Shown piece by piece: positions 29,594 through 31,282 of a stretch of 64,000 nucleotides of DNA. The notes beneath the pieces were generated by a model. That model had not been told where the DNA came from. It saw only the letters and a program-made list of their open reading frames with translations, and ran no database searches. Origin of the DNA: Mycobacterium sp. (GTDB lineage: Bacteria; Actinomycetota; Actinomycetes; Mycobacteriales; Mycobacteriaceae); contig RXJD01000024.1 of NCBI GenBank assembly GCA_003987775.1, positions 1-64,000 of the forward strand, in the 5' to 3' direction. The translations under genes were made by a program, and so were the position numbers. Each line of letters opens with the position of its first letter. Position 1 is the first letter of the stretch.

Positions 29594-29608
29594 TGAAAAC
29601 GATTATCA
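29594..29608. promoter_or_regulatory. Zur-type box upstream of PPE3
   Basis: TGAAAACGATTATCA is an AT-rich inverted repeat standing out in GC-rich DNA, 48 bases before the PPE start. It fits the mycobacterial Zur (FurB) site form TGAAAA-N-GATT-N-TCA. Zur control of the Rv0280-ESX-3 region is established in M. tuberculosis; here the call rests on sequence. Confidence 0.75.
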
Positions 29609-29656
29609 AAAGCGTTAACGTCCGAAGTCGGTGTTCGCCGATGGAGGAGTGTTGTG

Positions 29657-31282
29657 ATGGCCACGGTCTGGATGGCGGCTCCGCCTGAAGTGCATTCGAC
29701 GCTGCTCAGCGCCGGCCCCGGGCCCGGCGCGTTGATGGCCGCGGCGGCGGCGTGGACGGCGCTGAGCACCGAGTACACCGCGGTGGCCGACGAACTCCTG
29801 GCGCTGCTGGGGGCGGTGCAGGGCGGGGCGTGGGAGGGGCCGACCGCGGCGCAGTATGTTGCCGCGCACCAGCCTTTCCTGGCGTGGCTGACGCAGGCTG
29901 GTGTCACCAGCGCCCAGGCGGCCACCCAACACGAGACCGCGGCCGCCGCCTACGTCAGTGCGCTGGCGGCGATGCCGACGATGGTGGAGTTGGCCGCCAA
30001 TCACGCGATACACGGTGTCCTCATCGCGACCAATTTCTTCGGCATCAACACCATCCCGATCGCCCTCAACGAGGCCGACTACGCGCGGATGTGGATCCAG
30101 GCAGCCACCACGATGGCGACCTACGACGCGGTGTCGAGTGCCGCCGCGGCCTCGACTCCGGCCACCGCTCCGGCGCCGGAGATCGTGGCGGCCGAAGACG
30201 ACCACGGGGACGACGACCACGGCGATGACCACGATCATGCCGAAGACGACCACGGGGACGACCACGATCATGGCGAAGACGGCCACGAAGACCACGACCA
30301 CGGGGACCCCACCCCGCTGGACTACCTGGTTGCCGACCTGTTGCGGGCGATCACCGGCGGGCAGATCGACTGGGACCCCCTGGAGGGGACGCTGAACGGC
30401 GTCCACATGCACGACATCACCGACGCGACCCAACCCATGTGGTGGGTGGCGCGCTCCCTCGAGTTCGGCCAGCAGTTCGAGACCTTCGTCCAGCAGTTGT
30501 TCACCAACCCCGCCGGGGCGATCGAGTACGTCGTCCAACTCGCCGAGTTCGACTGGCCGACGCACCTGGCTCAGCTGGTTCCGCTGCTGCAATCCCCGCA
30601 GCTGTTGTCCTTTGCGATCGGCGGCGCCGTCGCCAACCTCGGTGCGGTGAGCGGCTTGGCCGGGCTGGCCGGACTCGGCGGGATACCGCCCGCGACGGTC
30701 GCCGCGGTCGTGCCGCCCGTCGCTGCGGCGACACCTGCCATCGCCGTCGCGGGACCCGCTCCCAGCGTGGTGGCCTCCGCGGCACCTGCCGCTCCGGCGC
30801 CGACGACGGCCACCGTCACCAGCACGGTCACCAGCGTGGGGACCGCACCACCGGCCGCCGGGCCGGCTGCCGGCACCGGCTTCCCCTTCCTGGTGGGCGG
30901 CGGACCCGGGATCGGATTCGGTTCGGGCATGAGTGCGCGTGCCAGTGCCAGCAGAAAGGCTCCGGAGCCCGACCTGGCTGCTGCGGCGGCCGCGGCGTCC
31001 GCACGCGAGCAGGCACGGGAGCGACGTCGCCGGCGTGCGGCGGCGCGCGATCACGGCGACGAGTTCGCCGACATGAATGTGGGCGTTGACCCGGACTGGG
31101 CAGCAGACGCCGGGCCCGCGGCATCGGGGACCGGCGCCGGTGGTTTCGGTGGATTCACCGGCACCGTGCGCAGCGAATCCGTCGCCGACGCGTCGGGGCT
31201 GGCCACGCTGGTTGACGACGAATTCGGTGGCCGGCCGAGGGCGCCGATGTTGCCGCGCACCTGGGATCCCGACGGGGCGTGA
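29657..31282 (+). CDS. PPE family protein with His/Asp-rich insert (PPE3-like)
   Basis: The 541-aa protein has the PPE domain (residues 1-175) starting VWMAAPPEVHSTLLSAGPGPG, with WEGPTAAQY and the ESX-3-type stretch NFFGINTIPIALNEADYARMW. Residues 179-217 are a His/Asp/Glu-rich insert with ten His (for example DDHGDDDHGDDHDH), a likely Zn2+ or Ni2+ binding segment. The C-terminal part has a basic stretch (REQARERRRRRAAARD) and the PPE-PPW signature GFTGT ... PMLPRTW. GGAGG precedes ATG 29657 (GTG 29654 is possible). With a Zur-type box upstream, it is probably induced by zinc shortage and secreted by ESX-3. It matches Rv0280 in place. Confidence 0.9.
   Translation: MATVWMAAPPEVHSTLLSAGPGPGALMAAAAAWTALSTEYTAVADELLALLGAVQGGAWEGPTAAQYVAAHQPFLAWLTQAGVTSAQAATQHETAAAAYVSALAAMPTMVELAANHAIHGVLIATNFFGINTIPIALNEADYARMWIQAATTMATYDAVSSAAAASTPATAPAPEIVAAEDDHGDDDHGDDHDHAEDDHGDDHDHGEDGHEDHDHGDPTPLDYLVADLLRAITGGQIDWDPLEGTLNGVHMHDITDATQPMWWVARSLEFGQQFETFVQQLFTNPAGAIEYVVQLAEFDWPTHLAQLVPLLQSPQLLSFAIGGAVANLGAVSGLAGLAGLGGIPPATVAAVVPPVAAATPAIAVAGPAPSVVASAAPAAPAPTTATVTSTVTSVGTAPPAAGPAAGTGFPFLVGGGPGIGFGSGMSARASASRKAPEPDLAAAAAAASAREQARERRRRRAAARDHGDEFADMNVGVDPDWAADAGPAASGTGAGGFGGFTGTVRSESVADASGLATLVDDEFGGRPRAPMLPRTWDPDGA
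30191..30262 (+). repeat. 48-bp direct duplication in the His-rich PPE segment
   Basis: A 24-base block beginning GCCGAAGACGACCACGGGGA occurs exactly at 30191-30214 and 30239-30262. The 48-base period equals 16 codons and encodes the His/Asp repeats, so the insert grew by in-frame duplication. Confidence 0.85.

What the first reader, a model, noticed from the sequence alone, without database searches (positions are those of the whole stretch)
29594..31282. A PPE protein with a metal-binding-type His/Asp insert under a Zur-type box
The first PPE gene encodes ten His and many Asp/Glu in residues 179-217, grown by 48-bp in-frame duplication, and a Zur-type operator lies 48 bases upstream. Zur controls zinc starvation genes. 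Together these suggest a secreted zinc-binding PPE, used to capture metal and hand it to ESX-3-dependent uptake. The paralogue upstream of eccA3 has an Asp-rich, His-poor linker at the same place, so the His segment is a specific gain or loss. I am not sure how far M. tuberculosis PPE3 shares it.
Basis: partly seen in the sequence, partly recalled or inferred. Interest (0 to 1): 0.75.

Follow-up and report, generated by a model that had tools for sequence, protein, structure and literature searches.

The report
Zinc-regulated mycobacterial protein with histidine-rich arm
A secreted-type mycobacterial PPE protein beside the ESX-3 export genes sits under a zinc-repressor site and carries a flexible histidine-rich arm of the kind that can grip zinc; many relatives pair the same two features, which suggests a surface zinc catcher that nobody here has yet tested.

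Summary
A Zur-type operator (29588-29611) lies just before a PPE gene (29654-31282) whose residues 179-217 hold 10 His and 20 Asp/Glu. In the 64 kb only this site and one before eccA3 exceed background. Zur control of the orthologue ppe3/Rv0280 is already in print; the His segment appeared in none of the papers my searches listed. The segment is not private to this strain. Among 198 related PPE genes, 34 of 72 with a Zur box have at least 4 His in this linker, against 2 of 126 without; the enrichment is confined to the linker. Of those 34, 27 contain HxxHxH, the zinc-binding triad of streptococcal Pht proteins; shuffled segments reach at most 19. The segment is predicted disordered, next to a PPE domain of ESX-3 type. 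Best reading: a Zur-controlled PPE with a metal-capturing tether that works like Pht zinc scavengers. Secretion, metal binding and uptake are inferred. Against it: few independent origins and no significance on the better tree, 38 boxed PPEs without a His-rich linker, and one His-rich PPE without a good box.

The parts
29588..29611 (+). Zur-type operator before the PPE gene (core 29594-29608)
   Evidence: matrix score 31.1 against a simulated maximum of 16.7; pattern match with one mismatch
29654..31282 (+). PPE3-type gene, 542 aa
   Evidence: ORF, Pfam PPE and PPE-PPW
29669..30157 (+). PPE domain, residues 6-168, ESX-3 type
   Evidence: PF00823; closest solved relative PPE4 of PE5-PPE4-EspG3, E 1.7e-67, also best by fold
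30188..30304 (+). His/Asp segment, residues 179-217
   Evidence: 10 His, 20 Asp/Glu of 39; residues 179-215 have pLDDT under 50
30197..30307 (+). imperfect in-frame repeat array that encodes the segment
   Evidence: 15-bp and 33-bp units
30284..30304 (+). HxxHxHG histidine triad, residues 211-217 (HEDHDHG)
   Evidence: motif scan
31121..31264 (+). PPE-PPW C-terminal region, residues 490-537
   Evidence: PF18878
31304..32200 (+). LCM-type methyltransferase gene between the two PPE genes
   Evidence: PF04072
32236..33771 (+). second PPE-PPW gene, acidic His-poor linker; true start probably further in
   Evidence: Pfam; linker
33747..33773 (+). second Zur-type operator, before eccA3, overlapping the end of the second PPE gene
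   Evidence: scores 37.9 and 36.5 on the two strands
33907..35820 (+). eccA3, first gene of the ESX-3 export cluster
   Evidence: Pfam EccA1-type N domain and AAA

Best explanation
The gene encodes a PPE3-type substrate of the ESX-3 class. Zinc-loaded Zur represses it, so it is made in zinc starvation together with the ESX-3 genes behind the second Zur box. After export, presumably as a PE/PPE pair guided by EspG3, its flexible linker presents clustered His and Asp, including an HxxHxH triad, outside the cytoplasm. There it binds zinc and concentrates it at the cell envelope for uptake by other components. Shown here: operator-like site, ESX-3-type domain and neighbourhood, the segment, its predicted disorder, its co-occurrence with Zur boxes, the excess of the triad. 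From papers: Zur represses ppe3 in the tuberculosis complex. Inferred: secretion, metal binding, preference for zinc, a role in uptake.
For: Operator. Zur binds the rv0280 promoter (PMC7863910 passages); ppe3 is listed as Zur- and MntR-repressed (PMC5855569 table passage); a PPE3 relative in M. avium ssp. paratuberculosis rises 75-fold under zinc chelation (PMC4298942 section 8). His in the linker: 34 of 72 boxed against 2 of 126 unboxed PPEs have at least 4 (Fisher 7e-16, not corrected for descent); both exceptions are the PPE directly before eccA3. Triad in 27 of 34 boxed His-rich linkers, shuffle mean 10.4 and maximum 19 of 1000 rounds. Disorder at 179-215. ESX-3-type PPE domain. Only one of 57 PPE domains scanned in this genome has more than 2 linker His.
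Against: 38 of 72 boxed PPEs have fewer than 4 His. Few independent origins: the better tree gives 4 gains at equal costs, 2 of them in unboxed genes, p 0.78 (0.18 at another cost); the other tree gives p 0.0001 to 0.14. Independent-pair tests had too few pairs. L288/L294 has 9 linker His and only a degenerate site of 14.9. Cut-offs (score 20, 4 His) were set after a first look at the data. ppe3 mutants lose fitness with high mycobactin, which points to iron (PMC7058343 passages). A 2025 review sees no evidence for Zn or Mn uptake by PE5-PPE4 (PMC12209268 passage). No binding or secretion data.
Confidence: 0.5

Rival explanations
1. The segment binds metal, but to buffer or detoxify it, or it serves a metal other than zinc (Mn, Ni, Cu, Fe). 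Zur control then places it in a general low-metal response rather than zinc capture.
For: His/Asp clusters bind several metals (general knowledge); ppe3 is listed as MntR-repressed as well as Zur-repressed (PMC5855569 table passage).
Against: Zur derepression fits capture in scarcity better than detoxification; boxed genes carry the His; the triad is a known zinc motif (passages).
Confidence: 0.25
2. The segment is a flexible acidic spacer grown by repeat slippage; its His has no metal role and is shared by descent within a few Zur-boxed lineages.
For: The DNA is an imperfect repeat; linker length and content vary widely among relatives; on the better tree the gains show no excess on boxed branches (p 0.18-0.78).
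Against: His rises 7.5-fold but Asp and Glu only 1.5-fold; triad order exceeds every one of 1000 shuffles, though relatives are not independent; HxHG occurs in 29 of 30 members of the clade.
Confidence: 0.15
3. The protein works in iron-siderophore use like other ESX-3 substrates; Zur control reflects only its place in the ESX-3 cluster.
For: ppe3 mutants have reduced fitness at high mycobactin (PMC7058343 passages); ESX-3 is required for iron uptake (PMC3796483 passages).
Against: The PPE gene has a Zur box of its own, apart from that of eccA3, and in relatives boxed His-rich PPEs also occur in loci where no eccA3 was seen in the fetched stretch (L037, L042).
Confidence: 0.1

Closest known systems
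M. tuberculosis PPE3 (Rv0280)
   Same: Zur-controlled PPE gene before a methyltransferase and eccA3; gene order recalled, Zur control from passages
   Different: Its linker could not be read here, so whether it is His-rich is unknown; the window also has a second PPE gene before eccA3
MAP3737 of M. avium ssp. paratuberculosis
   Same: PPE3 relative with two predicted Zur boxes, strongly induced by zinc chelation (PMC4298942 section 8)
   Different: Lies in a zinc genomic island, not before eccA3; its linker was not read here
Streptococcal polyhistidine triad (Pht) proteins
   Same: Surface zinc binding by HxxHxH, zinc passed to the transporter protein AdcAII (PMC3842936 passages)
   Different: No common ancestry shown; Pht proteins carry several triads in folded beta units, here one triad in a segment predicted disordered
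PE15/PPE20 and PPE51 outer-membrane transport
   Same: PPE proteins tied to passage of calcium or carbon sources across the mycobacterial outer membrane (abstracts in listings)
   Different: No His-rich linker was described in what I saw, which was only the start of the abstracts

Membership tests
PPE family, PPE-PPW subfamily | N-terminal PPE domain and C-terminal PPE-PPW region | tested here: met
   PF00823 E 1.1e-59 and PF18878 E 2.3e-15, both over cut-off
ESX-3 substrate PPE | PPE domain of the type recognised by EspG3 | tested here: inconclusive
   closest solved relative is PPE4 of PE5-PPE4-EspG3; binding to EspG3 and secretion not testable
Zur regulon | Zur box in the promoter region | tested here: met
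   score 31.1, simulated maximum 16.7
Zur regulon | repression by zinc-loaded Zur | not testable with these tools
   known for the orthologue (passages); not shown for this gene
Polyhistidine triad (Pht) proteins | several HxxHxH copies | tested here: not met
   one copy in the window's linker
Polyhistidine triad (Pht) proteins | triad held in a folded beta unit | tested here: inconclusive
   residues 179-215 have pLDDT under 50; a weak model without metal cannot exclude folding on binding
Secreted zinc scavenger | zinc binding and a zinc-dependent growth benefit | not testable with these tools
   needs binding and growth assays

The most novel reading that the evidence does not exclude
A class of Zur-controlled, ESX-3-type PPE proteins in slow-growing mycobacteria carries a Pht-like histidine-triad tether, kept or gained in at least two PPE lineages, and forms the cell-surface zinc-capture step that mycobacterial zinc uptake still lacks.
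Probability: 0.35. Interest if true: 0.75.

Novelty: new variant of a known kind. Interest (0 to 1): 0.55.

Why it matters
How zinc crosses the mycobacterial outer membrane is an open question: one ESX-3 paper of 2013 says that zinc uptake systems had not been identified in mycobacteria (PMC3796483 passage), and a 2025 review sees no evidence for Zn or Mn uptake by PE5-PPE4 (PMC12209268 passage). Zur control of ESX-3 and ppe3 has lacked a clear purpose. A PPE whose single His-rich stretch is a triad-bearing tether under a Zur box is a concrete and cheaply testable candidate for zinc capture by this secretion system.

Tried and rejected
Considered and rejected: that the segment is private to this strain; that it reflects His-rich proteins in general (His content of boxed and unboxed PPEs: PPE domain 3.07 against 2.91%, p 0.07; C-terminal part 1.11 against 1.12%, p 0.70); that the Zur site is a chance match; membership in the Pht family (one triad only).

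Tried without clear result: phylogeny-corrected tests (independent pairs, too few; gains on trees, p 0.0001 to 0.78 by tree, threshold and cost). The AU test of both His-rich groups as one clade gave p 0.037, but the groups were named after seeing the tree. Fold search matched PPE-type domains; nothing convincing for the middle region.

Rows dropped: 23 of 221 entries lacked 300 nt upstream, a full linker or enough of the domain. One is this genome's C33 PPE, first seen through a short locus and later found Zur-boxed with no linker His. Loci L282-L293 and L298-L317 came after the table and are not in it. One search found 113 relatives and returned the best 80. Of 75 eccA3 places I fetched 60, some cut by contig ends; 80 further regions came from the lists, both of which were cut. 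In this genome 57 PPE domains were scanned; one search lists 109 matches, some of them second pieces of one gene.

Full report
What is there. The window is contig C84 of a 7.29 Mb genome in 114 contigs. I take it as an M. gordonae-group species; this is an inference. The order is: MpaB/Lcp-type gene (28588-29583), Zur-type site (29588-29611), PPE gene (29654-31282), LCM-type methyltransferase (31304-32200), second PPE gene (32236-33771), second Zur-type site (33747-33773), eccA3 (33907-35820).

The operator. A matrix from 19 published M. avium ssp. paratuberculosis Zur boxes (PMC4298942 Table 2) scores the site 31.1. Only the eccA3 site (37.9) is of that order, and the maximum in 30 simulated 64-kb sequences was 16.7. 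In the whole genome, TGAAAANNRTTTTCA with up to two mismatches hits 43 and 44 times on the two strands against 14 and 13 for the control pattern. Of ten places with at most one mismatch, two are those of the window; by my reading of translations, without a family search, one lies between an rpmB2-like and a cobW-like gene, one before a ZnuA-like gene, one before a PPE gene (C1, matrix score 22.1) and one before a PPE fragment (C49); the other four I did not assign. One more PPE gene (C33) has a good site, 32.6. Zur control of ppe3 is known: Zur binds the rv0280 promoter (PMC7863910 passages), a review table lists ppe3 as Zur- and MntR-repressed (PMC5855569), and a PPE3 relative, MAP3737, rises 75-fold on zinc chelation (PMC4298942 section 8).

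The segment. Residues 179-217 hold 10 His and 20 Asp/Glu. The DNA is an imperfect in-frame repeat. AlphaFold2 on 23 sequences gives a helical PPE domain (about 1-166), no order at 179-215, and a second region of fair confidence at about 221-300 (block pLDDT 70-86); the model as a whole is weak (pLDDT 54, pTM 0.33). The PPE domain is closest to PPE4 of the PE5-PPE4-EspG3 complex by sequence (E 1.7e-67) and by fold (68% identity), which points to ESX-3. Secretion was not tested.

Relatives. PPE genes came from 80 named loci, 140 ESX-3 regions of unnamed Mycobacterium genomes and this genome. For each I counted His in the 56 residues after the PPE domain and the best Zur score within 400 nt upstream. 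Of 221 entries 198 were usable. With a box (score at least 20): 34 of 72 have at least 4 His. Without: 2 of 126, both the PPE directly before eccA3, downstream of a boxed PPE gene. Fisher p 7e-16, not corrected for descent; cut-offs of 3 and 5 His give 40 of 72 against 6 of 126 and 28 of 72 against 1 of 126. His is 7.5-fold commoner in boxed linkers, Asp and Glu about 1.5-fold; His content elsewhere in the protein hardly differs. Of 57 PPE domains scanned in this genome, the window's has 10 linker His and the next has 2; 3 of 57 have a site over 17. The sampling started from a boxed His-rich protein, so its own orthologues are over-represented.

Motif. HxxHxH, the zinc-binding histidine triad of streptococcal Pht proteins (PMC3842936 passages), occurs in 27 of the 34 boxed His-rich linkers, 26 of them with a following Gly, and in 2 of the 162 rows with fewer than 4 His. 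Shuffling each segment gave a mean of 10.4 and a maximum of 19 in 1000 rounds. Relatives are not independent, so this overstates significance. In the window the motif is HEDHDHG, residues 211-217.

Descent. On a tree without the linker, one supported clade of 30 PPE3-type sequences (SH-aLRT 99) is boxed in 30 of 30 and has 2-15 His; a second group of 8 boxed sequences (support 86 only) has 5-8 His; between them lie boxed sequences with 0-3 His. Holding both groups as one clade is weakly rejected (p-AU 0.037, groups chosen after seeing the tree). An alignment places the two triads in the same column, so one old origin with losses, or exchange, remains possible. At equal costs the better tree gives 4 gains, two in unboxed eccA3-adjacent PPEs, and no excess on boxed branches (p 0.78; 0.18 at another cost); the PPE-domain tree gives p 0.0001 to 0.14 by threshold and cost. 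The association is strong by sequence count and weak by independent events. Loci fetched later add two boxed His-rich cases (L282 with 4 His, L283 with 10) and one contrary case, L288/L294, with 9 His and only a degenerate site of 14.9.

Mechanism. Most likely the protein is made when zinc is scarce, exported by ESX-3, and uses the tether to bind metal at the envelope, much as PhtD is held to catch zinc and pass it to AdcAII. Shown: operator-like site, ESX-3-type domain and position, His/Asp tether, excess of the triad. Inferred: export, binding, zinc preference, hand-over. I put Zur control at about 0.93, metal binding by the segment at about 0.8, and a role in zinc acquisition at about 0.5; these are judgements. 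Contrary facts: 38 of 72 boxed PPEs are not His-rich; ppe3 mutants lose fitness with high mycobactin (PMC7058343 passages), which points to iron; no evidence supports Zn or Mn uptake by PE5-PPE4 (PMC12209268 passage).

Novelty. Zur control of ppe3 and ESX-3 is known. Ten paper searches were answered, in an open-access library only. Those aimed at a His-rich or metal-binding PPE listed no title or abstract start that describes one; several returned more papers than were listed, I opened passages or named sections of seven papers, and most subscription papers are missing (Maciag 2007, the Zur regulon paper, was not read). I rate it a new variant of a known kind.

Noticed in passing
L176 (this genome, C33), L022 4001-5488, L049 4001-5515: Zur-boxed PPE genes whose linker has no His but a Cys pair around RIDPWTG (in this genome and in records named M. 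nebraskense and Mycolicibacter longobardus): perhaps another metal site in the same place.
   Followed up: partly
window 32236-33771 and eccA3-adjacent relatives (for example L111, L220, L230): The PPE directly before eccA3 has a recurring acidic motif, roughly I-(V/I)-D-(N/D)-D-(G/S/A)-G-(D/N)-P, in its linker; it recalls Asp-rich calcium-binding motifs (recalled, not tested).
   Followed up: no
window 33747-33773: The strongest Zur-type site of the window, before eccA3, overlaps the last codons of the second PPE gene.
   Followed up: no
   Followed up: partly
L190 (this genome, C49:14201): A Zur-type site (30.2) between a short PPE-like reading frame and a small gene on the other strand that looks like a CsoR-type regulator by eye.
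   Followed up: no
L125 and L264 linkers: Extreme members of the clade: 15 linker His, largely His-Asp repeats, each with a Zur box scoring 37.4.
   Followed up: no
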